From an uncultured Mucilaginibacter sp. (GTDB lineage: Bacteria; Bacteroidota; Bacteroidia; Sphingobacteriales; Sphingobacteriaceae), in assembly GCA_913777515.1 (NCBI GenBank), contig CAJYSL010000443.1, positions 1 through 35,398 of the forward strand: a stretch of 35,398 bases of DNA, in the 5' to 3' direction. Of the stretch, positions 1,399 through 35,362 are shown one piece after another; the stretch's first letter is position 1, and the number at the start of each line of letters is the position of its first letter. Under the pieces are notes generated by a model. That model was given only the letters and a program-made list of their open reading frames with translations, had not been told where the DNA came from and did no database searches. The position numbers and the translations under genes were made by a program.

Positions 1399-2811
1399 AT
1401 GAAACTATCCTTTACAGTGCTTATGGCGCTTGGCGCACTTTACAGTGGATCATTAAAAGCTCAGAATACCCCTATTACAATTAAGGGAGATACCGTACTT
1501 ATACAAACGCGAAAGGTATTGGGCTTTGGGCCGGAGGGAAATTCATCAACGGCGTTTGGAAGTAAGGATATGAACAACAGCGACGAAGAATACCTGGCAT
1601 ATCCTACCATAAAAAACATCCCGCCAGAACTTACCGGGGTGAAGGAATTTTTTTACCCGGTAAACAGGTTCCAATTTATTTTTCAAAGCTACAAGGCCGG
1701 TAAAATTACAAAGCCGGGGTTATTAAAGAAAGCCGAAAACTATGGGTGGAATTTAGCCGATACGACTACGCTTTCGAAAAAGTATCTGGCTTGTTATATT
1801 AATGCTGCAGTTGGCAAAAATAAAGACGGTGATGATGCCATCATCATTGATTTAAATAATAACGGAGACTACGCGGATGATAAAATTATGTCACTGAAAC
1901 CTCGTCAAGAAAGTGAAGAGCAGATGTTGGCCTGGTCGGTTTCAGTTTCAACCGAAAGCATGCAAAACGGTAAAGTTGTGAAAAGCAGCGTACCGGTATG
2001 TCCGGCTGGCGCACTCTTCTCTCAACGAGGTATGTTATCGTTAGCCTTTCCGGAATTCTCTTACCAAAAATTTGCTTTTAACGGAATTGATTACGTTTTA
2101 TGCGTATCGGCGGGATATACCGGAAAGCCGTTTGTAGCGATACTGGCCGACAGACCTTACTTTGATCGCGTGAGCGGCTCCAAACGTGTGTTCGAAAATC
2201 AGTATGTTAAGTTAGATAATGCCGATTTTAAAATTGCAAAGATCAATCGAGAAGCAGCACAGGTTACGCTTGTCGGAACTGAATCGGCGCAGTTTAATAT
2301 TAAAGCTGAAGCAGGTATGAGTAAACAAGCCGTTGCCCGTACATCCGCAAAAATGCTGACATCATTTTCTACCGGCTATTTGGCGCCGCCAATAAAAGGC
2401 TTAAACATGAACCGTTATTTTACTAAGTATAGCGATGTTTCGTTGGCGAGCTTGAAAGGCAAATTTGTGTTTGTTGATTTTTGGGCTACGTACTGCGGAC
2501 CATGTATAGCCGAAATGCCTTATTTAGCGAAAGCTTACGAAAAATATCCGCGTGATAAATTCGAAATCATAGGTGTGTTTAATGAAACTGATGCTAAAAT
2601 CACTGAAAAGTTAATGCGGGATAATTTTGTTTCGTGGCCTAATATTTTACAGCACGCAAAAACAAGCAATGTATCAGGTTATGGCCTCGTTAACAGTTAT
2701 CCTACTACGTTGTTGATCAACCCGGAGGGAAAAATTGTTGCTAAAGACCTACGCGGCGAACAACTTGCAGCTAAACTCGATGAATTATTAAATGCAAATG
2801 TTAAAGATTAA
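1399..2811 (+). CDS. Exported thioredoxin/TlpA-like disulfide protein with a long N-terminal domain
   Basis: The 470-residue product begins with a signal peptide (MKLSFTVLMALGALYSGSLKAQ, likely cleaved near residue 22), so it acts in the periplasm or at the outer membrane. Residues about 340-468 form a TlpA/AhpC-type thioredoxin fold: FVFVDFWATYCGPCIAEMPY contains the redox pair C366-C369, followed by a conserved cis-proline-type segment (SYPTTLLINPEGKIV). The first 300 residues are not a domain I can name; they include an acidic stretch, DLNNNGDYADDK, that resembles a calcium-binding-like loop. Bacteroidota encode many such TlpA fusions that reduce or oxidise periplasmic proteins. The specific substrate is unknown. 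The next gene follows 57 bases downstream on the same strand and may be co-transcribed. Confidence 0.8.
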   Translation: MKLSFTVLMALGALYSGSLKAQNTPITIKGDTVLIQTRKVLGFGPEGNSSTAFGSKDMNNSDEEYLAYPTIKNIPPELTGVKEFFYPVNRFQFIFQSYKAGKITKPGLLKKAENYGWNLADTTTLSKKYLACYINAAVGKNKDGDDAIIIDLNNNGDYADDKIMSLKPRQESEEQMLAWSVSVSTESMQNGKVVKSSVPVCPAGALFSQRGMLSLAFPEFSYQKFAFNGIDYVLCVSAGYTGKPFVAILADRPYFDRVSGSKRVFENQYVKLDNADFKIAKINREAAQVTLVGTESAQFNIKAEAGMSKQAVARTSAKMLTSFSTGYLAPPIKGLNMNRYFTKYSDVSLASLKGKFVFVDFWATYCGPCIAEMPYLAKAYEKYPRDKFEIIGVFNETDAKITEKLMRDNFVSWPNILQHAKTSNVSGYGLVNSYPTTLLINPEGKIVAKDLRGEQLAAKLDELLNANVKD

Positions 2812-2868
2812 ATGTTTGGTGGGTTGTGTTGCAGAGAGTTTTGAGCAGACAACACGTTTTAGTAATTA

Positions 2869-3594
2869 ATGGACATTATCCGCATCATTCAAGAAACAGC
2901 CACCTGGATAGAAAAGGTTAATCCGGATATCGAAACCAATTTGTACCGAACGGCCGGATTATCGCCTAAAATGTATTATTACCAAATTCCTGATGAAGAA
3001 AAAGACCAGGTTGTTACAGATTTGGTTGCCAGCCGGTCGGCTGTGCTTAAGGCACTGAAGCTTGATTTGATTCCGGTTGATGAACTTGTTGGTTATGGCC
3101 GAATTATGTTTTTTGAGGCGAATGAAACGTTGATTGACGGAGCACCTCAGGAGGCTAGCTTTTGCTTTATAGACCAAAGCGATGCGCCTCCGTGGGATAC
3201 CTGGATAGCCACCGAAAGACAACTATTTAATATTGATTTTTGGGCTTATGACCTGAAGCTTACCAATAAAATGTTGATTGCGTGGGTGCCTAAGTCACAA
3301 TATTTTTATGCTCAGGAAGCTGTTGAGGTAGCGATGTTAGATAATTTTATATGGCCTAAAAGCGATTGTGTTGCCGGCCAATTTTCTGATGTCAGAAATG
3401 TGTTCAGCAAACCGCCAACCACAGATGAGCCGTGTAACACCATTGATATCCTGGCACGCCAGCGGCATTTGTACCGGTTGATACGTGATGCAGAGGCTTA
3501 CTCAAAAGTTTATTACAAAAAGTCGTCAACGGATGTTAAGCGAAAGAGTGACGTTAAAAATCCGTTTTGGAAACGTTTATTTGGGCGCAAGTGA
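2869..3594 (+). CDS. Hypothetical protein, 241 aa
   Basis: I do not recognise this family. The product is soluble-looking, without a signal peptide or membrane segment, and is rich in aromatic and acidic residues (for example DQSDAPPWDTWIATERQ around residues 101-117). The C-terminus is strongly basic (KRKSDVKNPFWKRLFGRK). It begins with ATG 57 bases after the thioredoxin-like gene, so the two may share a transcript. The middle segment, with alternating hydrophobic strands and a conserved-looking FWAYDLKLTNKMLIAWVPKS, reads like a compact alpha/beta domain. No catalytic motif is visible. Coding status is supported by length and natural composition. Confidence 0.65.
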   Translation: MDIIRIIQETATWIEKVNPDIETNLYRTAGLSPKMYYYQIPDEEKDQVVTDLVASRSAVLKALKLDLIPVDELVGYGRIMFFEANETLIDGAPQEASFCFIDQSDAPPWDTWIATERQLFNIDFWAYDLKLTNKMLIAWVPKSQYFYAQEAVEVAMLDNFIWPKSDCVAGQFSDVRNVFSKPPTTDEPCNTIDILARQRHLYRLIRDAEAYSKVYYKKSSTDVKRKSDVKNPFWKRLFGRK

Positions 3595-3845
3595 TTATCG
3601 CTTCGTTCTGCTTATATTTACTTTCCTGCTGTTTGTGGACTCAAACTCCTTTGCCTCCAACAAATAAATCAGCGAAGCCGCCCCATCCATGGTAAATTCG
3701 TTGCTGCTGTATTCGCCGGCATCATCGTGGTATACGGCCATGTCCGACTAGAAATCGGCATAGGTATCGGGGCGCGATAGTTTTATACCGCGCAGGTTGT
3801 TGTAAATGCGAGCATACACGTGGCCGTCAACCCTATAGATTACAG
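3595..3845 (-). pseudogene. Remnant of a glycosidase C-terminus (GH9-like), interrupted by TAG
   Basis: One minus-strand frame from about 3845 to a TAA at 3595-3597 reads as a natural protein (KAVIYRVDGHVYARIYNN, then LRGIKLSRPDTYADF), meets TAG at 3748-3750, and continues in the same frame (SDMAVYHDDAGEYSSNEF, TMDGAASLIYLLEAKEFES). The piece YHDDAGEYSSNEFTMDGAA fits the family 9 glycosyl hydrolase signature 2, [FYW]-x-D-x4-[FYW]-x3-E-x-[STA]-x3-N-[STA], at every fixed position except the Asn, which is Ala. That motif carries the catalytic acid Glu in GH9. Nothing upstream continues the domain, because the alpha/beta hydrolase gene occupies that DNA. I read it as a truncated, nonsense-broken fragment. 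The GH9 assignment is from one motif and is tentative. Confidence 0.5.
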
Positions 3846-3848
3846 CCT

Positions 3849-4751
3849 TTACATGCTTCTGCTTGCAATTACCCTTCCCGCTGTCGTTTCTCTAACAGGC
3901 CTTTCACGTTTGGGTGTTGCTAAATATACCTCAGTAGTCCTGGCAGATGGGGGCGTTAACGAAAGAAACTGTTCGGCTACTGTGGCTGGTATCATGTCGT
4001 TAGGGTCAGGGTCTTTGCGGCCGCCCCAGTAGTCGGAGTGCCCGGCGTTGTTGTACCGGCGTTGTATCATCCCCGGCAAAATCAGGCTGCCGCCGGCATA
4101 ATGGCGATGGCCAAGCGCTACCGGAAAAAAGCCTTCGCCGGCGGCGGTCTGGCCGGCCGGAAAGGCGAATTTTAAAACTATATCAGCTTCCGAGTAAAGG
4201 CTCATGGTACCGGCAAAGTATTTAAGGGCTTGCTGTAAATTATTAATATCCTCTAAATATTTTACCGGCACAGCGCCGGCCATAAAAACAATTTTGCCAA
4301 CCGACAAGCCCGACAACGAACCCTCGCGGCTTTTTATCGCTAGAAGATTTTTAACAACTTCCAGCACAAGCCTGCAGCCCAGCGAGTGCGCTACAAAATC
4401 GACGTAAAGATACCCCCGCTGTTTTGCGGCCTGAACCAAATCGGCAGCAAGCAGTGGAGCCACTAATTGTGCCTGTTCAACGGCTTGCATGTAGTACAGA
4501 GGCCCTGCCCAATTGGCACCCGGCCAATATATGCCTAAAATATTGGCATTGAGCGAGCCACTGTTTTGCTGCAACCCTTTAAACAGGGTATACGAATCGG
4601 AAGCGGCTTGCAGTTTATTGTTATACCCATGCACCAGCAACACCAGCGAACTTTTGTTTAACGCGTTGCTAGGTTGCGGGTCGCCTTTTGGCCGTATCTG
4701 TGTGCCCGTACCCGACCAGTAATTTAATGAAGGTTTGAAAGTTTCTGACAT
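3849..4751 (-). CDS. Alpha/beta hydrolase (lipase/DUF900-like)
   Basis: The product is a cytosolic-looking serine hydrolase. Using the ATG at 4751 gives 300 residues. An earlier in-frame ATG at 4802 would overlap the upstream gene by 47 bases, whereas 4751 lies 4 bases after that gene's stop, so 4751 is preferred. LVLLVHGYNN (residues 37-45) forms the oxyanion-hole HG motif, and VDFVAHSLGCRLVLEVV contains the nucleophile elbow AHSLG with Ser123. A late HYAGGS-type segment may supply the catalytic His. The fold and the early WPG segment resemble DUF900-type esterases; the natural substrate is unknown. The C-terminus (AGRVIASRSM) ends where the decayed glycosidase-like remnant begins, so the last residues may have been altered by that rearrangement. 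It appears co-transcribed with the membrane protein gene upstream. Confidence 0.75.
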   Translation of the reverse strand: MSETFKPSLNYWSGTGTQIRPKGDPQPSNALNKSSLVLLVHGYNNKLQAASDSYTLFKGLQQNSGSLNANILGIYWPGANWAGPLYYMQAVEQAQLVAPLLAADLVQAAKQRGYLYVDFVAHSLGCRLVLEVVKNLLAIKSREGSLSGLSVGKIVFMAGAVPVKYLEDINNLQQALKYFAGTMSLYSEADIVLKFAFPAGQTAAGEGFFPVALGHRHYAGGSLILPGMIQRRYNNAGHSDYWGGRKDPDPNDMIPATVAEQFLSLTPPSARTTEVYLATPKRERPVRETTAGRVIASRSM

Positions 4752-4755
4752 CAGG

Positions 4756-5529
4756 TTATGACTTTTTAATGCTCGATAGCCCGGTGATGATATCTTTTGC
4801 AAAAGGAGAGATCATGCCGCCAAAGAGCGCCAAGAAAACGGCAGGTATGATAGGTGAAGGGTGCGGATCGAGCATTCGTAGAAAGGAAAAAATAAGTATC
4901 GACGCTCCGCCTACAGCCCAATACTGGTTTAACCTTGCCCATTTGTATTCGGTTCGGGTCTGAAACGCATCCAGTTTTCTGGATACAAAATGGTCTATTC
5001 TGGCCCTTGCTTTTGTAGCGGCCTGGGTAGCTTCATCACTAGGTGCAGTCCCGGCCCTCGTGATAAAATTAGCCCAAATATCTCTGTCTTGCGAAGACTT
5101 TTGGTCATTATAATTGTTGTCCGACTGGTTTGTCTCGGCACGCGCCGCTTCGGAGCGGGGCACGCCTGTCAAAAAATCGTACATGGCCGGGTATAAATCC
5201 GGAAAATCAATAACCACGTTTGTTGCCGCCTGTATCTGCCCGAGCATTTTATCGGTTGGCTGATCAAACAGGGCATCAGCCGACTCTACCTCGGCTACCG
5301 ATAGGATAAGCAGTTCATGGTAGGCTTGCTCGTTTTTAAGCCAGGATACAATTTTTTTGCGATGGTAATTTAGCCTGAGGCCAAACACGGCCTTTATGAG
5401 CTCTAAAAATGTCATGGTAATGGTGGCTATTGAAGCAAGCAAAACGGCATACGACAGAATGTTGCCAACGAAACTATCAACGATACCAGGCAACCCGCCT
5501 ACGAATTCTGTGTTTTTAAAAATTTCCAT
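4756..5529 (-). CDS. Hypothetical membrane protein, 257 aa
   Basis: The family is not recognised. The protein has one hydrophobic segment near residues 24-50 (ILSYAVLLASIATITMTFLE) and a hydrophobic pair near residues 205-250 (AVGGASILIFSFLRM and IIPAVFLALFGGMISPFA). The roughly 150 residues between them are hydrophilic and probably cytoplasmic. The middle part contains a low-complexity polar stretch (ETNQSDNNYNDQKSSQDRD). The architecture, two terminal membrane regions around a soluble domain, suggests a scaffold or sensor rather than a transporter. The alpha/beta hydrolase starts 4 bases after its stop codon, indicating translational coupling, so the two probably work together. Confidence 0.65.
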   Translation of the reverse strand: MEIFKNTEFVGGLPGIVDSFVGNILSYAVLLASIATITMTFLELIKAVFGLRLNYHRKKIVSWLKNEQAYHELLILSVAEVESADALFDQPTDKMLGQIQAATNVVIDFPDLYPAMYDFLTGVPRSEAARAETNQSDNNYNDQKSSQDRDIWANFITRAGTAPSDEATQAATKARARIDHFVSRKLDAFQTRTEYKWARLNQYWAVGGASILIFSFLRMLDPHPSPIIPAVFLALFGGMISPFAKDIITGLSSIKKS

Positions 5530-5686
5530 AATTAAAAGTTAAGATGGTTTTTAATTTGACGGTCGTTTATGAGACGACGTGTAGTGAATTATGCCCTCAA
5601 TGCCGGCTAGCACATCGCGTGTTATTAGCTTACCATGATAACCGAAGGTGGGGATAGATAACTGTTTTGCCGGATGGTAGCTGATG

Positions 5687-7408
5687 CTACTTTGTAAATT
5701 CAACAAATTTCCCCAAATCAAATTTCTTCGAAAGGGCTAAGGTCACAAACGGCGGACTGCCCTTTGACAATAAACCCCGTACCTCGCCGGTAAATGAAAT
5801 ACCAAAATGCTCTTCGCTCAGGCGGAATTGAAAAACGTAAAACATCTTCCAGTTGCGGCTAACAGGATTTCCGGATGCAGCTAAAATTTCGTTGAATTTA
5901 TTAGCGCTGGGCTGGTTGCTAACGCCGATAACCGGGTTAAAGAAAACGTTTGTTTTACCCTCTTTAAAATAAACGGGTAAGCCCATGCCTATATAATGCG
6001 AAAGCAAATTCGACTCTATTTTTGTCGCCTTGTCTGCATACTTATTAATTTCGCTGGCCACTACAAAGAGTGTGTCTTTTCTTTTGAGGCTGGAAAAATC
6101 CTGTTCCTGAGAAATGCGTTGCCATTGTATTTCGAGCCAAAGAGATGTAAAAAAATGAAGGCCTTCATAATTGGCGCCGCCTCGCGATATTCTTATTTGC
6201 GGCGAAAAGAAGAGCCCCAGGTTTCTGGATACCTGAACCGTTTTAACCGTTCCGGAATCTACAAAAACGCCAACATTGTTCCCCTGTTTTAAGGCTACAG
6301 ATTGGTCTGTATAATACGATCGCCCAACGGTTTTTTCTTCAGATATATCAGCAGTGGCCTTTGATTCAAACACACCGGCGAAAATTCCGAGGTTATCTTC
6401 TTTTCTTCCTTTTGACTTGAAAAGCGGGCGTATATCACGTTTAAAGAAGAAGACTCCTGAAAAGAAATTATTGGGCTTCAAACCGTCAACCAAATCAAAA
6501 TTGGATCCTACCTCTACCCAAAACGGTTGATTAGGGTTGTAGCGCCCTCGTTGGCTCAAGGTAACACGGTGGCTGCCCGTTGCACCCGGAATGGTAATTT
6601 CAACCGATTCTTCTTCAAAATCCTTTTCGGGTATAGCGCTTATTTGCAGATATATTGTTTTTGTTACGGTCTCATTTTGATTTAATAGCTTTATTTCGCC
6701 GGCTGACAGGAGGACTTCAGGCTGAGGAAAAACACTTACATTGGCTTGGTTACCGCCCGGCTTTGTTACTGTCAATTTTACCAGCGTATCATTTTTACTG
6801 ACGATAGGATTAACGCTTGTACTTGCCTTTCTGATCTGTATAATGACAGGCACTTCTATTGTTTTTTGTGTGGTGTCGCTAAGCAGTGGTGGTATTATGG
6901 AAGCTTTTGAAACAATTTCAAGGCTCTGGCCCGGGTAGTTTCCTTCAAATAACAGTTCGGCAAACTCGATTTGACCAGTCACTTTTAAATAGGCAGTTTG
7001 CGCCTTTGCCGGTAAAACTTTAGGGTGTATAACAGAGATATCAACTGTGCGGGTGAAACTTTGGTTTAGCTTTTTAAAATCCGACTTTTTAAAAGTCAAC
7101 TTGATCGCCTTATCAGTAGTATTGGTCAGGTTGTTATAAAATAATGGTTCGAAGTCGGGGGCAAAATCCTCAATATAGATTGTTTTAACAATATCTGTTT
7201 TTGGAGTTTTATCCACAAATTGAAAGGTTAACGTAAGCTGCTTAGTAACCCGGTCGTCATTGCCTCGCTGATTGAACGAAATGGGGGGTGCAAGACTAAC
7301 CAAACGCACATTCTGCGCGGTTGCAGCGAAGTAAAAAAGACTTAATAAAAGGCTCAAAAATAAACTGCTGCCCGTTAACCAAGACTGTTTCCGTTTGGCA
7401 ATTGACAT
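5687..7408 (-). CDS. Large exported hypothetical protein
   Basis: The start chosen is ATG at 7408, giving 573 residues beginning MSIAKRKQSWLTGSSLFL, an excellent signal peptide that ends near FAATAQ. A longer frame begins at 7531, but its 41 extra residues precede the signal peptide and do not look exported. Residues about 40-310 alternate short hydrophobic strands with LTVTKPGG-like and VTLSQRG-like turns, as in tandem Ig-like or immunoglobulin-fold domains. The last 250 residues have aromatic, amphipathic strands (FWVEVGSNFDLVDGLKPNNF, LHFFTSLWLEIQWQ) and could form an outer-membrane barrel or surface domain. No enzyme motif is visible. It is separated from the following membrane protein gene by 157 bases. 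Confidence 0.7.
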   Translation of the reverse strand: MSIAKRKQSWLTGSSLFLSLLLSLFYFAATAQNVRLVSLAPPISFNQRGNDDRVTKQLTLTFQFVDKTPKTDIVKTIYIEDFAPDFEPLFYNNLTNTTDKAIKLTFKKSDFKKLNQSFTRTVDISVIHPKVLPAKAQTAYLKVTGQIEFAELLFEGNYPGQSLEIVSKASIIPPLLSDTTQKTIEVPVIIQIRKASTSVNPIVSKNDTLVKLTVTKPGGNQANVSVFPQPEVLLSAGEIKLLNQNETVTKTIYLQISAIPEKDFEEESVEITIPGATGSHRVTLSQRGRYNPNQPFWVEVGSNFDLVDGLKPNNFFSGVFFFKRDIRPLFKSKGRKEDNLGIFAGVFESKATADISEEKTVGRSYYTDQSVALKQGNNVGVFVDSGTVKTVQVSRNLGLFFSPQIRISRGGANYEGLHFFTSLWLEIQWQRISQEQDFSSLKRKDTLFVVASEINKYADKATKIESNLLSHYIGMGLPVYFKEGKTNVFFNPVIGVSNQPSANKFNEILAASGNPVSRNWKMFYVFQFRLSEEHFGISFTGEVRGLLSKGSPPFVTLALSKKFDLGKFVEFTK

Positions 7409-7851
7409 CAGGCGGGTGTTATCTAAAAACTGCTGGTGTGGTCTGGCTTCGCCTGGTTTTTTGCTGATGCGTTGATGGAAGGATATGCAATCAAAAAAAC
7501 GATAAATAATAGGTTGTAAATATATCATCATAGTATAAATTAATTAGCGCGTTTGGATGTTGCCGGATGCAGAGGCAGAATGATTGCATCTGCTTCAAAA
7601 TTGCGGAGTGGCTGACCGCCTATCAATACCTACCTAGGGGTATTTGTGAAATATTATTAACTTATTCATGAAAATAGTGCGAACGGCGACTTATTTATCA
7701 TAAGTTATTTTACATTTATGAAAGATTAAAATACCACGCACGGGGTATAGGTTTAAGGTAAATATTGCCTGAGTTTTGGTGCAGCAACGATAGTGGCTAT
7801 CTATTATCGAATTCCTTAACAAAAATCATAAACAATTAAATTCACAACACT
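7409..7851. other. Divergent intergenic region upstream of the exported protein and the signalling operon
   Basis: This 443-base region separates two divergent transcription units. I see no further gene once the 7408 start is used. A candidate promoter for the operon on the right is given separately. There is an AT-rich stretch around 7640-7730. Confidence 0.5.
7775..7805 (+). promoter_or_regulatory. Candidate Bacteroidota-type promoter of the 7852-10366 operon
   Basis: TTTG at 7775-7778 is followed by exactly 19 bases and then TATCTATT at 7798-7805, which matches TAnnTTTG at four of six fixed positions. The ATG of the first gene is 47 bases downstream. The spacing fits; the -7 box is imperfect. 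Confidence 0.35.
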
Positions 7852-8331
7852 ATGAGCGATGAAAAATCAATTTGTTCAGAAGAGAACAATAACCCAATCG
7901 GTGTCGGTACACGCATGAAAGAAGATAGTGCTCGGATTGCGGTCTTAAATTATCTTCAAAACGCGCCAATGGGACGTCACGATGAGAGACATTTTTTTGG
8001 TTTCACATTTGGTTTAGACACTTTGAAGAAGTTTATGGACGACATTGATAAGCATAATAATAAGAGCACGGTACCTGCTAATGAGAAAATTGAAGGGGTG
8101 CGTATTTATTATGGTAAAACGATTCGTGAGAATCCAAACCTTCCGGAACAAAAAGGGGTAATGTTACCTGATTTAATTTTTGTACCTGTAATGCCAAACG
8201 GGAAGGATTACTACACAAAAGTACTTCCGGAGAAGCTTAACGATGATGACATGATTTTAGGTGAATCACGCCCTTGCCCTAACCAGTGCAAGCTTGAATT
8301 TTTGAAGAAAGAAGAAAAAAAGCAAGCGTAA
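7852..8331 (+). CDS. Hypothetical protein, 159 aa, first gene of a signalling operon
   Basis: I do not recognise a named domain. The product is soluble and charged, with no signal peptide. A central segment (HFFGFTFGLDTLKKFMDDID, about residues 45-64) and a later strand-rich part (EGVRIYYGKTIREN, then GVMLPDLIFVPVM) suggest one small alpha/beta domain. Two cysteines occur near the C-terminus in SRPCPNQCKLEF, a CxxxC spacing that could bind metal or form a disulfide. The tail is lysine-rich. It lies 11 bases before the membrane protein gene and heads a run of four closely packed genes that ends in a histidine kinase and a response regulator, so a role in signal input or as output target of that system is likely. 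Confidence 0.65.
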   Translation: MSDEKSICSEENNNPIGVGTRMKEDSARIAVLNYLQNAPMGRHDERHFFGFTFGLDTLKKFMDDIDKHNNKSTVPANEKIEGVRIYYGKTIRENPNLPEQKGVMLPDLIFVPVMPNGKDYYTKVLPEKLNDDDMILGESRPCPNQCKLEFLKKEEKKQA

Positions 8332-8342
8332 AGGAGAGATTA

Positions 8343-8987
8343 ATGAGCTACACAGAGATAGTGTTTGGTTTGTCCAATAACTCAGATTTGTCCGAATTGC
8401 TGCCTCTGTTAGCCTGGTTATATTATGCCCGTAAAAAACCACCTTATCATATTTTAGGGTGGTTTTTTGCGGTTTCGGCACCGATAAAAATCTACACACT
8501 AATTACAGCCGAAATGCATAAAAATAATATGCCGGCCTATCACTTATTATCCTGTATTGAAATTATTGCTGTAACGCTGTTTTACAACAAGCTAATTTAT
8601 GGTCGTGTAATCTACTGGCTTATAGCTTTGCTGCTCATTTTTAATATAGCTAATACGCTTTTTTATCAATCTATACACGACTTCAATTCTTTGGCCTGGG
8701 CTATTGATATGATGGTGATAATTGGTTTAGGCATGTTTTACTTTTACAAGCTTTACCAAAACGATACCGACCATACGCCATTAGAAAAGCGACCCGATTT
8801 TATGGTTACCGTCGCGTGGCTGCTATACGCTGCCGGATCGTTGTTTGCCTATTTGATGGGTACCGAAATTTTATCGGGCAAAGCTGAAGGTTTTTTTAAA
8901 AATGCATGGATATTTCAGGAAGTTTCTAACATCATTAAAAATATCATCATGGTTTACGCATTTAGTTTGGTAAATCGGCATGAGTAA
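8343..8987 (+). CDS. Multi-pass membrane protein, probable sensor partner of the adjacent kinase
   Basis: The 214-residue product is hydrophobic throughout, with about six or seven membrane segments (for example VIYWLIALLLIFNIANTLFY, LAWAIDMMVIIGLGMFYFYK and VAWLLYAAGSLFAYLMG). No transporter signature is visible. Its end overlaps the start of the histidine kinase by 8 bases (ATG of the kinase at 8980), which indicates translational coupling. The kinase itself has only one membrane helix and no sensory domain, so this protein probably supplies the sensing module, an arrangement seen in many Bacteroidota kinase operons. That role is inferred from context. Confidence 0.75.
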   Translation: MSYTEIVFGLSNNSDLSELLPLLAWLYYARKKPPYHILGWFFAVSAPIKIYTLITAEMHKNNMPAYHLLSCIEIIAVTLFYNKLIYGRVIYWLIALLLIFNIANTLFYQSIHDFNSLAWAIDMMVIIGLGMFYFYKLYQNDTDHTPLEKRPDFMVTVAWLLYAAGSLFAYLMGTEILSGKAEGFFKNAWIFQEVSNIIKNIIMVYAFSLVNRHE

Positions 8988-9756
8988 TAGTGCCTATCTG
9001 GTGTTAGGCACCTCGTCTATGGTGCTTATGATGATGGCCATCATCGGGTTCATTTACTTGTATTCGCGCAAGCTGTCGGCTAAGGCCCGTGAGTTTAAAG
9101 AGATTGAGCAGTTGATGCAAAAGCAGGAACTGCGTTTAGCGCACTTTTTAATTGAGGGCCAGGAGCAGGAACGTAAACGCATTGCTGCCGAACTGCATGA
9201 TAATATTGGCGGCCTGCTGGCAACCCTTAAAATTTACAGCGACCTGGTGCTTACCAAGTCTGATTTGGACGAGGTGACGCGGCTAAACGAAAAAATTAAT
9301 TCTATCAGCTCAACACTCAGCGCGGAGGTGCGTCAGCTATCGCACGAGCTGGATTTAAGAACTTTGTCGGGCTTTGGGCTCAAGGTAGCTTTAGAGCAAT
9401 TGTGCGAGGCCATCAACGGCTCGGGTAAATTAAAGGTAAGTTCGTTTATTGATATGCATAAACCCTTTCACGATGATATCTCCTTACATTTGTACCGTAT
9501 TGTGCAAGAGTTGTTTACCAATACTTTAAAGCACGCTTTAGCAACCACCGTACGCCTGGAAGTATCGCAGATTGAAAACGATTTGGTGATGATTTTTGAA
9601 GATAACGGACGTGGTTTTGATACCGCTGCCGGGGGAAAAACGGGGGTTGGTTTGCAAAATATACGGTCGAGGGCAAACCGTATTGCCGGAAAACTCACCA
9701 TTGATTCATCGGCCAATGGTAGTACCTTTATATTGGAGGTAAGCAATTATGAATGA
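8980..9756 (+). CDS. Sensor histidine kinase, NarL-type (HisKA_3)
   Basis: This 258-residue inner-membrane kinase autophosphorylates on His and passes phosphate to a LuxR-type regulator. One membrane helix spans about residues 4-28 (LVLGTSSMVLMMMAIIGFIY). A coiled linker follows, then the HisKA_3 dimerisation helix with ERKRIAAELHDNIGG, the phosphoacceptor being H73. The ATP-binding domain shows the N box QELFTNTLKHA, the G1 box EDNGRGFD and the G2-like GVGLQNIRSRANRI. No periplasmic sensor domain is present, so input probably comes from the overlapping membrane protein. Its stop overlaps the response regulator start by 8 bases. All key residues are intact. Confidence 0.93.
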   Translation: MSNSAYLVLGTSSMVLMMMAIIGFIYLYSRKLSAKAREFKEIEQLMQKQELRLAHFLIEGQEQERKRIAAELHDNIGGLLATLKIYSDLVLTKSDLDEVTRLNEKINSISSTLSAEVRQLSHELDLRTLSGFGLKVALEQLCEAINGSGKLKVSSFIDMHKPFHDDISLHLYRIVQELFTNTLKHALATTVRLEVSQIENDLVMIFEDNGRGFDTAAGGKTGVGLQNIRSRANRIAGKLTIDSSANGSTFILEVSNYE

Positions 9757-10366
9757 GCTTTTAGTATACATTGCTGATGATCATGCCATCGTGGTTGATG
9801 GTTTGATGGAAATACTTAAAAGCGCTGCCGGCATCCGGGTGTTGGGTACTGCCGCCAACGGCGAAGAACTATTACGCCTGATGAGCAACCGCCGTGCCGA
9901 CCTGGTAATTATGGACATCAATATGCCGAAAATGAATGGCATACAGTGCACCGAACGTATTAAAAAAGATTACCCGGCAACCAAGGTAATCATCCTTACC
10001 ATGTATCCTGAACGGTCGTACATTAGCCAGTTAATCAAAGCAGGTGCCGACGGATGTTTGCTCAAAAGCCGGGGCAGCCTTGATTTGATAGAAGCTATTG
10101 AACGCATTAAAACCAGCCGGTCGTATTTTGACCGCATTCAGGACTTTGCCGAGAAAGAAGAGCATCCTGCCGTAAACCTTAGCGACCGCGAAATAGAAAT
10201 TATACGACTGATGGTGTTGGGCCTAACCAGCGCAGACATTGCCGAACGCTTATTTTTATCAGAACATACCGTTAAAACGCACAAAAAAAATATTTACCGA
10301 AAAATAAAAATAAACAGCGCTGCCGAGCTTACCACTTTTGCCATGAACAATCAATTGCTCAACTAA
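9749..10366 (+). CDS. Response regulator, LuxR/NarL family
   Basis: The 205-residue product has an N-terminal receiver domain with acidic pocket D10-D11, phosphoacceptor D56 in DLVIMDINMPKMNG and conserved K106 in CLLKSRG. A C-terminal LuxR-type helix-turn-helix follows (LSDREIEIIRLMVLGLTSAD, then IAERLFLSEHTVKTHKKNI). It is the DNA-binding output of the kinase encoded immediately upstream, with which it overlaps by 8 bases. Targets cannot be read from the window. It is the last gene of the operon; the next genes are convergent. Confidence 0.95.
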   Translation: MNELLVYIADDHAIVVDGLMEILKSAAGIRVLGTAANGEELLRLMSNRRADLVIMDINMPKMNGIQCTERIKKDYPATKVIILTMYPERSYISQLIKAGADGCLLKSRGSLDLIEAIERIKTSRSYFDRIQDFAEKEEHPAVNLSDREIEIIRLMVLGLTSADIAERLFLSEHTVKTHKKNIYRKIKINSAAELTTFAMNNQLLN

Positions 10367-10430
10367 GCAATCGGTTGCTCATGCTAATAAATTGCTGATT
10401 TTCAGGATTGGTAACTGCCATTAGTGATGC

Positions 10431-11099
10431 CTACCTATACTTTTTAAGCAATTCCGTAAAATTGTCGGTAGCATGCGGCTCGCCAATGGCCCTGAATTTC
10501 CACGAGCCATCCTTGCGGTACAGTTCGGCAAAGGTCATGGAGCACATGCCGTTAAAGGTGGCATCGCCCGAAAGGCTGTACCTTGCAATCTCCTTACCCC
10601 GTGCATCCACCGCGCGGATAAACGCGTTATCAACCATGCCGAAATGCTGATTATTGTGCCGCCCCTGGTAAATGCTCACCAAAAACAAAATACGCTGGTA
10701 CTGCTGCCCCAATGAGTTTAGCTTTACGATGATTTGCTCATCATCACCATCGCCTGCACCGGTACGGTTATCGCCCGTGAGCCAAATATGGCCCGACGGG
10801 TGCTGCATGGAATTGAAAAAGATGATGTCGCCGCCGTACAAATTTATCTCGCGCCCGTTGGGGGCCTGTGCCTTGCGGCCCAGGTTGGCCACCTTGCCGT
10901 TAGCATCCAGCAAAAAGGCAATGGCATCCAGGTCGTATTCTTCTTCTTGGCCGCCGCCAAAAAGCTTGCCTAAAAAGCCGGTGTTTTTTTGCCGTACGTC
11001 CCAGCCCAGGCCCAAGGTAACCGTGCTGAGGTCATACTCTTCGCCCTGGTCGTTTTTACGCAGGTCGATGGTTTGACCTTTAATTAAGTTGATTGCCAT
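10431..11099 (-). CDS. TerD family protein (222 aa)
   Basis: The product belongs to the TerD/CABP1 family, calcium-binding proteins first linked to tellurite resistance and now tied to stress and phage defence. It starts MAINLIKGQTIDL and contains the family motif TLGLGWDV, then an insertion GFLGKLFGGGQEEE before the acidic EYDLDAIAFLLD. A second acidic cluster, GAGDGDDEQI, probably completes the calcium site. NAFIRAVDARGKEIARY and MTFAELYRKDGSWKFRAIGE are typical C-terminal strands. It lies 9 bases downstream of another TerD paralogue, so they form an operon. No other ter genes (terC, terB, terZABC) appear nearby, so a classic tellurite cluster is not supported. It is convergent with the signalling operon. 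Confidence 0.92.
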   Translation of the reverse strand: MAINLIKGQTIDLRKNDQGEEYDLSTVTLGLGWDVRQKNTGFLGKLFGGGQEEEYDLDAIAFLLDANGKVANLGRKAQAPNGREINLYGGDIIFFNSMQHPSGHIWLTGDNRTGAGDGDDEQIIVKLNSLGQQYQRILFLVSIYQGRHNNQHFGMVDNAFIRAVDARGKEIARYSLSGDATFNGMCSMTFAELYRKDGSWKFRAIGEPHATDNFTELLKKYR

Positions 11100-11108
11100 A
11101 CGGTGCGG

Positions 11109-11684
11109 TTATTTAATGATTTGACCTTTAAAATATTTAGCTAAAAAGAAGGCCAGGTCTTCGCGGTAACCAATGCCCGAAGCTTCAAACTTCCAGCTGC
11201 CGTCGCGCTTGTAGAGCCTGCCAAACTCAATGCCGGTTTCGATCGAAAAATCTTCGCCCAGCTCGTATTTGGCAATTTCGCTGCCGTTAGAGTCGTCAAC
11301 AATGCGGATGTAGGAGTCGCGCACCTGACCGTAATTTTGCTTGCGCACCAGGGCGTCATGGATAGTTACGACAAATAAAATCTCGTTCACCCGCGGGTCA
11401 ACCAGCGACAAGTCAACGGTGATAATCTCGTCATCTCCGTGGGCGCTGTTGCCGCCGGTAGGGTCATCGCCCGAGTGGTGCAGGGCGCTGTCGGGGGAGT
11501 CGGTATTGCCATAAAAAATAAAAAACTCTTCGGCCGGGATAAGCCGGTTCTGGTCAATCATGATGGCCGAGGCATCCAGGTCAAAATCGTAACCCGTGCC
11601 CTCGTTAGGATTCCATCCCAAACCCACACTTATTTTTTGCAGACCAATATTGATACGCTGGCCCTTTTGCAGATTAATTGCCAT
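11109..11684 (-). CDS. TerD family protein (191 aa)
   Basis: This is a standard-length TerD-family protein. It starts MAINLQKGQRINIGL, and VGLGWNPNEGTGYDFDLDAS contains the first acidic calcium site; DDPTGGNSAHGDDEII gives the second. The conserved ends SYIRIVDDSNGSEIAKYEL and GRLYKRDGSWKFEASGIGY are present. It is cytosolic and probably binds Ca2+. It is the upstream gene of a two-gene TerD operon. Similarity to the neighbouring 222-residue copy indicates a tandem duplication followed by insertion of a glycine-rich loop in the other copy. Confidence 0.93.
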   Translation of the reverse strand: MAINLQKGQRINIGLQKISVGLGWNPNEGTGYDFDLDASAIMIDQNRLIPAEEFFIFYGNTDSPDSALHHSGDDPTGGNSAHGDDEIITVDLSLVDPRVNEILFVVTIHDALVRKQNYGQVRDSYIRIVDDSNGSEIAKYELGEDFSIETGIEFGRLYKRDGSWKFEASGIGYREDLAFFLAKYFKGQIIK

Positions 11685-11801
11685 AGACGGTGACGTTATA
11701 AAGTTTATGATACCGACTTATAAATGTTGTTTGATAAGCCGATATAGAAATACAACTTTGGTAAAAGGTTGTTTATAAATGGGGGTAAAGTAAAAGATGT
11801 T

Positions 11802-14672
11802 TTAACTTGCCATTCCGCTTATAAACGTATCTACAAAACTTAAAATTTTGGTTAATATCCGGTCGCCAATTTCTTTAGATTTCAGGATGCTTGGCCGGCC
11901 TTCTTTTCTTAGGTCCAAAATATCATTACGCAACGGTTCGCGTTCGGCAAACAGGTAGTTTTCTATCAGTTTTTCGGTTTTCTCTTCGGATAAGTTTTCG
12001 TCGTTTACTAATACTTTCAAGGCTTTATCCTGCTCTGCATTCCAGAATTTTTCAAACTCTTCCTGGATGTCTTCGGTATCTTCAATGTGAGGCAGGCTTT
12101 CTTTGATAAATTTTTCAATCAGTTCCCGTTTGCTTCTTAGCGATACTTCGTTATTTAAAAGATTAAAAACTTCTTGCTCAATATTTGCTTTCTCCTTTGT
12201 GTTTTGCTTTGCCTTAATGAGTAATTGCATAATGTAGGACACATTGATGGTGTCTCTCCTGATAAGCTCAAGCTCAAAATCAATATCGTTCAGGATAGAA
12301 GTTTTCTCGTTAGAGCCACCCGTAGACAGTTTGTCTTTTAAGTCGAGGTATTTACTGGTATAGGCTTCAAAAGATTGCTGTTCTATAGCTAAGTTACTCC
12401 AGGCGAACTCCGTATAATGGCTCATTTTTTTGTGTAAGCGCATCATCTCCCTAAAAGCTAATATAAATTCGAGTTTTTCCTCTTCGCTATATAAGTCATC
12501 TACATTGTTAAAGTGAGGTACAATGTCTAACAATTTATCAACCGCGTCGTTAAACTTGTCTACGTATACATGGTAAGGCTCCACGATGATGTCATCCACA
12601 ACGTCTTTGGCTTCCTTGTTACTAAAAAGCGCAATAGCTTCGTCCGTTTTGTCTTTTAAATTACGGAAGCATACAATATTGCCCTGCGTTTTATTTTTGT
12701 CTAAAATACGATTGGTACGGCTAAAAGCCTGTATTAATCCATGATACTGAAGATTTTTATCAACGTACAATGTATTTAGATATTTACTATCAAACCCGGT
12801 TAAAAACATGTTGGCTACCAGCAAAATGTCTGCCTCGTTGTTTTTGGATTTTTTGGCTACGGCGTTATAGTATGTATAAAAACCTTCGGAGTCTCTTACG
12901 TTTTCGGACATGCCATACATGGCGTTAAAATCGGCCACGTATCGTTCCAGCAGTTCGCGCCGGTGCGGGATGTAGCTGTTGCCGTAGGCAACGCTTGGCT
13001 CGGCCGCAATGTTATACTGCTGCATAATACTGCTTTCTAACTCATCCTCGTTGGCGGCGTAACTAAATATGGTGGTAACCTTTAAATTGTGCTCGCCATT
13101 AAGTTTTTTACGGTTAAACAATTCATAGTACTGAATAACCGCGTTAATGTCCTGTACGCACATCATGGCACAAAAACTACGGCTTTGCGTTTTTGAGTTG
13201 TGATGTTGAATAATGTAATCAACAATAGCCTCTTTGCGCTTCGGCGATTCGTAAACTTCGGCCTCGTTAATTTCTACAACTTTAAGATCGATGATATGCT
13301 CTTTTTGTTTAAATGTTTTGATGTATTCTACCGAAAACTTCAGCACGTTTTCATCCCCGATGGCATCGGTTATCACATATTTATGCAGGCAGTCTCCAAA
13401 TAAACTTTTGGTCGTCTTTTCACCATTTGAATTTTTTTCTAAAATAGGGGTGCCGGTGAAACCAAACAGCTGAATATTAGTAAAATAACCCACGATGTTT
13501 GCATGTGTATCGCCAAACTGCGAACGATGGCATTCATCAAAAATGAAAACCATGCGCAGGTCGGTTATGGCTTTCATTTTAAGCTGATTTCTTGCCGATA
13601 TGGCATTATTCAGCTTTTGAATAGTGGTGACAATAATCAGTACGTTAGGGTCCCTGAATTTGGCAATCAAATCGTCGGTGTTGGTAGCCGAGCTCACTGA
13701 GCCTTTGCTGAATTTTTCGTACTCCTGGTTAGTTTGGTAGTCCAGGTCTTTGCGGTCTACCACGAACACTACTTTTTTGATAGCTGGAATTTTTGATAAT
13801 ATCTGGCTGGCCTTAAAACTGGTCAAGGTTTTACCACTGCCCGTAGTGTGCCATATGTAACCGTTTTTTTTGATGTCGTACCCATTCAGCACTTCGTTGG
13901 CTGTCACTTTTTTGATGATGCTTTCTACCGCGTAATACTGGTAGGGGCGCATTACCATTAGTTTTTTATCGGTTTCGTTAAGTACAATGTACTTGCAAAT
14001 CATTTTGCTTACATGGCAAGGCTCCAAAAAGCTATCGGTAAAGCCGTTTAATATGTTATTGAGTGGTTTGTTGTTTTCGTCGGTCCAATGAAAAGTTTGC
14101 AGGAACTCTTGGGCATTGGTGCCGAAATTGCTGAAGTATTTGGTGTTTACACCGTTACTGATAATAAACAACTGCACAAAGTGAAAAAGCCCTTTACCGG
14201 CGCCAAAGCTGTGTTTTTTGTAACGGTTTATCTGATTAAAGGCTTCTTTAATTTCAAGGCTTACCCGTTTTAACTCAATCTGTACCAGAGGCAAGCCGTT
14301 TATTAAAAGGCTAACGTCGTAACGGTTGTCGTACTTGCCTTCCTGGCTAATCTGGTGGGTAACCTGATATTCGTTCTGACACCAGTGCTCCACATTTAAA
14401 AACTCGAAATACAGGTTATCGCCGTTATCGCGCAAAATGTGCTGACGTTCGCGCAGGGTTTTAGCCTTTTCAAAAACCGAGCCTTTGGTGAGAATATTCA
14501 TCACCTTATCAAACTCCGCATCGCTCAGCACTATGTTGTTATGCTTTTCGAGCTGAGTTTTCAGATTAGATATTAACGATTTTTCGTTAGGGATGACAAC
14601 GTATTTATAACCGAGTTTTTGTAGTTGGGCAATCAGCTTTTCCTCAAGTACCTGTTCAGATTGTTTGCTCAA
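11802..14672 (-). CDS. hsdR: Type I restriction enzyme, R (translocase/endonuclease) subunit
   Basis: HsdR cleaves unmodified DNA after ATP-driven translocation, as part of the R2M2S complex. The 956-residue product has an N-terminal PD-(D/E)xK nuclease domain with D119, E133 and K135 in DVSLLINGLPLVQIELKR. An SF2 helicase follows: Walker A HTTGSGKT at 275-282, DECH at 379-382, FTGTP near 405 and motif VI IQAFSRTNRI. The C-terminal 200 residues are helical and probably contact HsdM. Length and motifs are complete. It lies downstream of the recombinase gene, separated by 93 bases, on the same strand as hsdM and the expressed hsdS. Confidence 0.95.
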   Translation of the reverse strand: MSKQSEQVLEEKLIAQLQKLGYKYVVIPNEKSLISNLKTQLEKHNNIVLSDAEFDKVMNILTKGSVFEKAKTLRERQHILRDNGDNLYFEFLNVEHWCQNEYQVTHQISQEGKYDNRYDVSLLINGLPLVQIELKRVSLEIKEAFNQINRYKKHSFGAGKGLFHFVQLFIISNGVNTKYFSNFGTNAQEFLQTFHWTDENNKPLNNILNGFTDSFLEPCHVSKMICKYIVLNETDKKLMVMRPYQYYAVESIIKKVTANEVLNGYDIKKNGYIWHTTGSGKTLTSFKASQILSKIPAIKKVVFVVDRKDLDYQTNQEYEKFSKGSVSSATNTDDLIAKFRDPNVLIIVTTIQKLNNAISARNQLKMKAITDLRMVFIFDECHRSQFGDTHANIVGYFTNIQLFGFTGTPILEKNSNGEKTTKSLFGDCLHKYVITDAIGDENVLKFSVEYIKTFKQKEHIIDLKVVEINEAEVYESPKRKEAIVDYIIQHHNSKTQSRSFCAMMCVQDINAVIQYYELFNRKKLNGEHNLKVTTIFSYAANEDELESSIMQQYNIAAEPSVAYGNSYIPHRRELLERYVADFNAMYGMSENVRDSEGFYTYYNAVAKKSKNNEADILLVANMFLTGFDSKYLNTLYVDKNLQYHGLIQAFSRTNRILDKNKTQGNIVCFRNLKDKTDEAIALFSNKEAKDVVDDIIVEPYHVYVDKFNDAVDKLLDIVPHFNNVDDLYSEEEKLEFILAFREMMRLHKKMSHYTEFAWSNLAIEQQSFEAYTSKYLDLKDKLSTGGSNEKTSILNDIDFELELIRRDTINVSYIMQLLIKAKQNTKEKANIEQEVFNLLNNEVSLRSKRELIEKFIKESLPHIEDTEDIQEEFEKFWNAEQDKALKVLVNDENLSEEKTEKLIENYLFAEREPLRNDILDLRKEGRPSILKSKEIGDRILTKILSFVDTFISGMAS

Positions 14673-26248: not shown

Positions 26249-27028
26249 TTACTTCTGTACAGTCGACTCACATTGTATCAACAGCCTGCTGATAAACTCG
26301 CTGTATTCATCGCGCATAGGTAGTTCCAATTCGGTATGCAGTATGCGTTTGTTTGTCAGCACCACTTCGTTGGTTTGAGCGTTGATGCCCTCTTTTTCAA
26401 TGATTTTCCAGTATACGCCTATGCCTCTTTTTTGCCAGGGGGGAAGGTCGTTAAAGTTAATGCCATATTGGTAAAGTAATTCATTTTTAGCAGCTATGCT
26501 CAGGCCATTGATTTTGGCCGCCGCGTCGCGTGCGCTAATGTTTTCTTTTCTGAGGCGCCAGTAGCAATGCGCGTTCAGCGCATTGCGGTGGGCGTCTTCG
26601 TTGCGCCACCTGAAATAATCTTCAACTAAGGCTTTGTTCGGAAGTTCGGACAAGCGGCAGTCAAACGCTGCAGGGTGCCCCAAAAGCGCCGAAAACTGAG
26701 CGCTGGCCTCACCAGCCAGTATCGACAGATATTTTCGCGTCTTTCTGCCGAATGCGTCTTCGTTGGGATGGAAAAGCAACGATATCTCGTCGCTTTCAGT
26801 ATAGCCGTAGATTACGTTAAAACCGCAGGTCATCAAATGCTTTACGGTGGCAACCATCAGATCACGAAAGCGCTCGTCAAACGGCGCCTCAAACGGGTGC
26901 ACTTCTTTAGTAAGCCTGGTAAAGCCTCGTCCGTCAATCCGGGCTACCAGGTACATGCCGGGTAAAACGTTGCGGTCTTGCGTGGTTTCATAAATCCGCA
27001 TTTTTTGGTCAAGGGTATCAAATTTCAT
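26249..27028 (-). CDS. Thg1-like 3'-5' RNA nucleotidyltransferase
   Basis: Thg1-family enzymes add nucleotides in the reverse 3'-5' direction. Bacterial members (TLPs) repair truncated 5' ends of tRNAs. The chosen start ATG at 27028 gives 259 residues; a start at 27088 adds 20 residues that overlap the kinase gene further. The two metal-binding motifs are intact: RIDGRGF with D32, and YTESDEISLLF with D80. At the position of the eukaryotic HINNLYN motif, which goes with tRNA-His specificity, this protein has HRNALNA (in DAHRNALNAHCYW), so it looks like a TLP rather than a tRNA-His guanylyltransferase. Its start overlaps the kinase gene's end by 11 bases, so the two are coupled. Confidence 0.92.
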   Translation of the reverse strand: MKFDTLDQKMRIYETTQDRNVLPGMYLVARIDGRGFTRLTKEVHPFEAPFDERFRDLMVATVKHLMTCGFNVIYGYTESDEISLLFHPNEDAFGRKTRKYLSILAGEASAQFSALLGHPAAFDCRLSELPNKALVEDYFRWRNEDAHRNALNAHCYWRLRKENISARDAAAKINGLSIAAKNELLYQYGINFNDLPPWQKRGIGVYWKIIEKEGINAQTNEVVLTNKRILHTELELPMRDEYSEFISRLLIQCESTVQK

Positions 27029-27464
27029 CCAGCCATTGTTTGATGGTAAATGTATTATTTTCAGCCGTAACGTAATACAGTTCATCAAAGCCTTCAGTAA
27101 AAGAGGGCGGTACTAAACGCTTGTACGTTCCCCTAATACCAATTTCGGGGATGTTTTCCTTACCGGTGCGGTGCCGGTTACGGGCCAAAGCATCGTCAAG
27201 TTTTGATTGAAAATAATAGCCGATAACTTTAAACCGGTTGACTTTGGCAATTGTTATGTAAGTTGCCCGCTCTTCTGGCGATGGGTTAGTATTATCTACA
27301 ACAAAAGCTTGCGAGGTTTGAATGCAGGTGTCAATAAACCGGCGTTCCTTGTTGCGGGTGTTAAGCTGGTCAAGCGATATCCGCATGTGCGTTTTAAAAA
27401 ACTGATCTTTGTAAAAAGTAGTTTTTCCGGTGGCCTGAATACCGCAAAATATTACCGCTTCCAT
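27018..27464 (-). CDS. P-loop polynucleotide-kinase-like protein
   Basis: The 148-residue product reads as a small 5'-polynucleotide kinase of the T4 Pnkp kinase-domain type. The Walker A motif is GIQATGKTTF (K14, T15). ISLDQLNTR (D32) sits where PNK-family enzymes keep the general-base Asp. FVVDNTNPSPEERATYI matches the DxTN strand of that family, and the lid segment ALARNRHRTGKENIPE carries Arg residues for the phosphates. It lacks a C-terminal phosphatase domain. It is translationally coupled to the Thg1-like gene. Together they would make an RNA end-repair unit: one phosphorylates a 5'-OH end, the other rebuilds missing 5' nucleotides. This role is inferred from motifs and coupling. Confidence 0.82.
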   Translation of the reverse strand: MEAVIFCGIQATGKTTFYKDQFFKTHMRISLDQLNTRNKERRFIDTCIQTSQAFVVDNTNPSPEERATYITIAKVNRFKVIGYYFQSKLDDALARNRHRTGKENIPEIGIRGTYKRLVPPSFTEGFDELYYVTAENNTFTIKQWLDEI

Positions 27465-35269: not shown

Positions 35270-35277
35270 AACTTTTG

Positions 35278-35362
35278 CGGAGAGTTAGGGATTCGAACCC
35301 CAGGACCTGTTACAGTCAACAGTTTTCAAGACTGCCGCAATCGACCACTCTGCCAACTCTCC
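35278..35362 (-). tRNA. tRNA-Ser (anticodon TGA)
   Basis: Read on the minus strand, the sequence starts GGAGAGTTGGCAGAGTGG and ends ACTCTCCG. The acceptor stem GGAGAGT/ACTCTCC is perfect, with discriminator G. The D arm AGAGTGGTCGATTGCG, the anticodon loop CTTGAAA (anticodon TGA), a long variable arm (ACTGTAACAG region) and GGTTCGAATCC in the T arm identify a class II serine tRNA. CCA is not encoded. Its promoter and terminator are both visible. Confidence 0.97.

What the first reader, a model, noticed from the sequence alone, without database searches (positions are those of the whole stretch)
26249..27464. Translationally coupled polynucleotide-kinase-like and Thg1-like genes: candidate RNA 5'-end repair system
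The kinase shows Walker A, the D32 general-base position, the DNTN strand and an Arg-rich lid. The Thg1-like enzyme keeps both metal Asp residues but has HRNALNA where tRNA-His enzymes have HINNLYN. An 11-base overlap couples them. Together they could phosphorylate a 5'-OH cut end and then rebuild nucleotides 3'-5'. No ligase or phosphatase is next to them.
Basis: partly seen in the sequence, partly recalled or inferred. Interest (0 to 1): 0.78.

Follow-up and report, generated by a model that had tools for sequence, protein, structure and literature searches.

The report
Kinase and reverse-polymerase RNA repair pair
Two overlapping bacterial genes encode a kinase and a backwards-building RNA polymerase that travel together between unrelated bacteria and probably mend the broken front ends of RNAs such as tRNAs; this pairing was predicted in 2010, and I found no laboratory test of it.

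Summary
On the minus strand, a 148-aa PNK-type kinase (27018-27464) overlaps by 11 nt a 259-aa Thg1-like protein (TLP; 26249-27028). The pair is conserved: 30 of 32 homologous loci carry both genes. In the window's genus (121 genomes sampled) 12 have the TLP, and the same 12, only, have this kinase, always adjacent. Flanking genes change, so the two genes are the unit, and a patchy one.

The kinase's nearest solved relatives are 5'-OH polynucleotide kinases; the TLP's is the archaeal tRNA-repair TLP. The host encodes G-1 of tRNA-His, so the classical Thg1 job is redundant. Elsewhere these TLPs sit with RNA-repair genes: kinase-TLP with Hen1 and two RlaP genes (Deinococcus plasmid), TLP overlapping RlaP (Thiodictyon plasmid); a distant TLP overlaps RtcB.

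Anantharaman, Iyer and Aravind (2010, PMC2904730) reported bacterial Thg1-PNK gene neighbourhoods and proposed that the kinase makes the 5'-phosphate for Thg1. I found no experimental test in the library searched.

Most likely: the kinase phosphorylates a 5'-OH RNA end, and the TLP activates it and rebuilds lost nucleotides 3'-5' on the opposite strand, which needs no ligase.

The parts
27018..27464 (-). PNK-type 5'-OH polynucleotide kinase-like P-loop protein, 148 aa (first gene of the pair)
   Evidence: PF13671; PDB profile best match mammalian PNKP kinase E 5e-18, then fungal kinases, Clostridium Pnkp, PSTK, T4 Pnk; AF2 pLDDT 92, Foldseek best mammalian PNKP
26249..27028 (-). Thg1-like protein (3'-5' RNA polymerase), 259 aa (second gene of the pair)
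   Evidence: PF04446 and PF14413; PDB best 5axk Methanosarcina TLP
27018..27028 (-). 11-nt stop/start overlap ATGAAATTTGA, consistent with translational coupling
   Evidence: same 11-nt overlap in 26 of 30 homologous two-gene loci

Best explanation
A two-gene, laterally mobile RNA 5'-end healing module. Step 1 (inferred from family): the kinase phosphorylates the 5'-OH left on the 3' piece of a tRNA or similar RNA cut by a metal-independent nuclease. Step 2 (inferred; shown in vitro for other TLPs): the TLP activates the 5'-phosphate with ATP or GTP and adds nucleotides 3'-5', templated by the opposite strand of the stem, rebuilding the lost 5' end. If the lost piece is short this needs neither ligase nor 3'-phosphatase, which would explain why neither is in the unit; for internal cuts the host's Pnkp ligase could finish the job. 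Shown here: gene identity, conserved pairing and overlap, presence and absence as a unit, RNA-repair neighbours in relatives, redundancy for tRNA-His G-1.
For: Pairing: 30 of 32 loci from Bacteroidota, Bacillota, Thermodesulfobacteriota, Acidobacteriota and Pseudomonadota hold both genes; in 121 genus genomes TLP and kinase are in exactly the same 12, adjacent; 4 of 5 TLP genomes in a phylum sample are paired. No other gene recurs widely across the neighbourhoods. Kinase: nearest solved relatives are polynucleotide 5'-kinases by sequence and fold, and DNTNP, D32 and the RNxxR lid are invariant. TLP: nearest is MaTLP; the review PMC6471195 states that all tested bacterial/archaeal TLPs prefer 5'-truncated tRNA repair, up to 13 nt for I. 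hospitalis. Host tRNA-His already encodes G-1 opposite C73. Context: kinase-TLP near Hen1-RlaP-RlaP on a Deinococcus plasmid, TLP overlapping RlaP on a Thiodictyon plasmid, distant TLP overlapping RtcB. Co-occurrence with Pnkp ligase in the genus 5/12 against 13/121, Fisher p 0.003.
Against: No biochemistry. The kinase family match is remote (about 23% identity to PNKP in the fold search) and other members of this P-loop class act on other substrates (PSTK and PFK-2 also appear). 15 TLPs inside the same clade, nearly all on viral contigs, lack this kinase, so the TLP can act without it. Only two plasmids give direct Hen1/RlaP linkage for this clade.
Confidence: 0.7

Rival explanations
1. The pair prepares 5' ends for a ligase in trans: the kinase makes 5'-P, the TLP fills missing nucleotides or leaves a 5'-App (activated) end, and Pnkp or another ligase seals the RNA.
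For: Host has Pnkp-Hen1-RlaP and two RtcB genes; 5 of 12 pair genomes have Pnkp; relatives sit beside Hen1/RlaP. PMC2904730 suggested the App route.
Against: 7 of 12 pair genomes have no Pnkp ligase match; RtcB needs 5'-OH ends (general knowledge), so the kinase would block it; no ligase is linked in most loci.
Confidence: 0.2
2. tRNA-His maturation: the TLP adds G-1 and the kinase is incidental.
For: PF04446 family name; TLPs can add G-1 to tRNA-His with C73 in vitro.
Against: Host tRNA-His gene encodes G-1 opposite C73; the gene is absent from 109 of 121 genus genomes; maturation by RNase P leaves 5'-P so no kinase is needed (general knowledge).
Confidence: 0.03
3. The kinase phosphorylates a small molecule or a protein, or the pair is a toxin-antitoxin or signalling module rather than repair.
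For: AAA_33/P-loop kinases are diverse; patchy, mobile distribution with a tight overlap resembles accessory modules.
Against: Best sequence and fold matches are 5'-OH polynucleotide kinases with their signature residues; partner and neighbours elsewhere are RNA-repair enzymes.
Confidence: 0.07

Closest known systems
Bacterial Thg1 plus PNK-kinase gene neighbourhoods (Anantharaman, Iyer and Aravind 2010, PMC2904730)
   Same: Same two protein families adjacent; same proposed order kinase then Thg1; same proposed RNA/tRNA repair role.
   Different: This report adds the near-invariant 11-nt overlap, exact co-presence in the genus, patchiness, G-1 redundancy in the host and Hen1/RlaP linkage. MACRO and RNA-ligase neighbours mentioned there were not seen beside this clade in the cellular loci scanned; a viral relative has an ATP-dependent ligase-domain gene.
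TLPs of Methanosarcina acetivorans (5axk) and Bacillus thuringiensis (4kgk)
   Same: Fold, Thg1 and Thg1C domains, metal Asp residues, non-HINNLYN motif.
   Different: About 29% and 25% identity in the fold search; this clade has its own kinase partner.
Pnkp/Hen1/RlaP RNA repair cassette
   Same: Contains a homologous kinase domain and heals RNA ends; Hen1 and RlaP are linked to kinase-TLP on a Deinococcus plasmid.
   Different: Multi-domain kinase-phosphatase-ligase; here a single-domain kinase with a 3'-5' polymerase and no ligase.
T4 Pnkp and mammalian PNKP kinase domains
   Same: P-loop fold, general-base Asp, DNTN-type motif, Arg lid.
   Different: No phosphatase domain; 148-aa stand-alone kinase.

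Membership tests
Thg1 superfamily, TLP branch | PF04446 catalytic domain with PF14413 C-terminal domain | tested here: met
   109.2 and 55 bits against cut-offs 29.2 and 26.3
Thg1 superfamily, TLP branch | Two metal-binding Asp residues (D32, D80) | tested here: met
   Invariant in 18 aligned members
Thg1 superfamily, TLP branch | Lacks the eukaryotic HINNLYN motif | tested here: met
   H147-R-N-A-L-N-A153 aligned to HINNLYN
Thg1 superfamily, TLP branch | Templated 3'-5' nucleotide addition to 5'-truncated tRNA | not testable with these tools
   Needs purified protein
Eukaryotic-type tRNA-His guanylyltransferase | Needed because G-1 is not encoded | tested here: not met
   G-1 encoded opposite C73 in the host tRNA-His gene
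5'-OH polynucleotide kinase (PNK) | P-loop fold closest to PNK kinases | tested here: met
   AF2 pLDDT 92.1; Foldseek top 17 hits are PNKP, Clostridium Pnk or fungal kinases
5'-OH polynucleotide kinase (PNK) | Walker A, general-base Asp, Arg lid | tested here: met
   K14, D32, R95, R99 invariant in 19 members; D32 aligns with the Asp of NRDTL in PNKP
5'-OH polynucleotide kinase (PNK) | Phosphorylates 5'-OH RNA or DNA | not testable with these tools
   Biochemistry needed
Bifunctional PNK-3'-phosphatase (NCBIfam TIGR01663) | Passes the equivalog model of the whole bifunctional protein | tested here: not met
   31.4 bits against cut-off 502.8; only the kinase part is matched
Thg1-PNK neighbourhood of PMC2904730 | Thg1 gene adjacent to PNK-family kinase gene | tested here: met

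The most novel reading that the evidence does not exclude
A self-contained, ligase-free tRNA 5'-end restoration system: after a ribotoxin or phage-triggered nuclease removes the 5' strand of a stem, the kinase puts a phosphate on the 5'-OH and the TLP re-synthesises the missing strand backwards on the surviving 3' strand; it spreads between phyla and onto viral contigs as an accessory, conflict-linked module.
Probability: 0.25. Interest if true: 0.65.

Novelty: new member of a known kind. Interest (0 to 1): 0.4.

Why it matters
The natural substrates of bacterial TLPs are an open question (PMC6471195). A dedicated kinase that is always present or absent with the TLP in this genus suggests that the natural end is a 5'-OH, that is, a nuclease-cut RNA and not an RNase P product. 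That makes the question testable with a two-protein reaction.

Tried and rejected
Third conserved partner: none recurs across the loci; neighbours scanned were unrelated families (WYL, amidase, YqeY, TonB and others). MACRO-domain neighbour as in PMC2904730: not seen among the neighbours scanned. tRNA-His G-1 role: rejected by the encoded G-1. Phage records: 116 phages have distant TLPs, none at or above 60% identity, and no match to this kinase. Empty-site check: the histidine kinase-regulator-OMP block next to the pair is kept in two genus genomes without the pair (G035, G046), but retrieved flanks were too short to define both ends. A 2016 NAR review of RNA repair systems (known to me from memory) and the MaTLP structure paper were not in the library, so what they say about this pair could not be checked.

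Full report
What is there. On the minus strand of the window a 148-aa P-loop kinase gene (27464..27018) is followed by a 259-aa Thg1-like protein gene (27028..26249), overlapping by 11 nt. Pfam places them in AAA_33 and in Thg1 plus Thg1C. The window lies in contig C443 of a fragmented Mucilaginibacter-type genome (4.67 Mb, 473 contigs; nearest relatives by name are Mucilaginibacter).

Is it real and conserved? A scan of one genome per species returned 32 loci encoding the TLP at 58-83% identity. Thirty have the kinase immediately upstream, 26 with exactly the same 11-nt overlap, two with 4 nt, one with a 39-nt gap and one with a stop inside the kinase frame; of the other two, one has a TLP without the kinase and one is a partial match at a contig end. 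In 121 genomes of the genus the TLP is in 12 and this kinase (E below 1e-70) in exactly those 12, always adjacent. In 396 genomes drawn from the phylum five have a TLP, four of them paired. Genes around the pair differ from locus to locus. So the pair is the unit, is kept as a unit, and is patchy. TLPs at 75% identity in Mucilaginibacter and in Kapaibacterium/Ignavibacteria genomes, and a clade that mixes five or more phyla and viral contigs, indicate lateral transfer, with the reservation that some of these are metagenome bins.

What each protein is. The kinase profile matches mammalian PNKP (E 5e-18), two fungal kinases, Clostridium Pnkp, PSTK and T4 Pnk. Its AlphaFold model (pLDDT 92) matches the same structures. 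Walker A lysine, D32, DNTNP, R95 and R99 are invariant. The TLP profile and model match Methanosarcina TLP best; D32, D80 and E81 are invariant and the eukaryotic HINNLYN is HRNALNA (one member ARNALNS) through most of the family. In the B. thuringiensis TLP the corresponding last position is also not Asn (PMC3701042), so this is the usual bacterial state.

What it is not for. The host tRNA-His gene has G at -1 opposite C73 (L048 positions 578 and 504), so post-transcriptional G-1 addition is redundant.

Context. On a Deinococcus taeanensis plasmid kinase and TLP (4-nt overlap) are followed by a DUF705 gene, Hen1, RlaP and RlaP. On a Thiodictyon plasmid a 58% identical TLP overlaps an RlaP gene, near a BREX gene. 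A distant TLP in another Bacteroidota genome overlaps an RtcB gene. The window's host itself carries Pnkp-Hen1-RlaP (C184), RtcB with a release-factor-like gene (C449) and RtcB with HEPN and GmrSD genes (C381). In the genus, Pnkp ligase is in 5 of 12 pair genomes against 13 of 121 overall (p 0.003, not corrected for kinship or genome size).

Mechanism. TLPs activate a 5' phosphate and add templated nucleotides; tested bacterial and archaeal TLPs prefer 5'-truncated tRNA (PMC6471195). Metal-independent nucleases leave 5'-OH (established knowledge). A dedicated 5'-OH kinase therefore fits as the first step. Because the TLP rebuilds the strand on its template, no ligase or 3'-phosphatase is required when the lost piece is short; this is inference.

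Prior knowledge. PMC2904730 (2010) already reports that in bacteria the most persistent Thg1 association is with a PNK-family kinase and proposes this order of reactions. Searches of the held library found no experimental follow-up; the library lacks many subscription papers. The finding is therefore a real and well-supported member of a predicted kind, not a new kind.

Tree. Of 113 TLPs, all 39 paired ones fall in one strongly supported group of 54 (100/100), with 15 unpaired relatives, 14 on viral contigs and one in a Fibrobacterota bin; 59 more distant TLPs, nearly all from viral contigs, are all unpaired. The simplest reading is an old association with some losses or swaps; two viral contigs have the kinase downstream of the TLP instead (L086, L087).

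Noticed in passing
L069 (G463 C26) 102-2122: A distant TLP gene overlaps an RtcB RNA ligase gene, another TLP-repair pairing without the kinase.
   Followed up: partly
L076 (G000 C381) 5165-13303: RtcB beside HEPN (RiboL-PSP), GmrSD, a protein kinase and a WYL regulator; a tRNA cluster (Pro, Ile-TAT, one odd tRNA called with a four-base anticodon, Gln) lies at 3004-3327 of the same contig.
   Followed up: partly
L077 (G000 C449) 2778-4837: RtcB followed by an RF-1-domain protein, resembling the RtcB-PrfH repair pair.
   Followed up: no
L082 2811-3968 and L083 2149-2766: Viral contigs with TLPs of this clade lacking the kinase: one has an ATP-dependent ligase-domain gene next to the TLP, the other a release-factor-like gene two genes away.
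   Followed up: no
L161 2321-2686: DUF705 gene between kinase-TLP and Hen1-RlaP on the Deinococcus plasmid; possible phosphatase.
   Followed up: no
window 35277-35362 -: tRNA-Ser (TGA) gene near the right end of the window.
   Followed up: no
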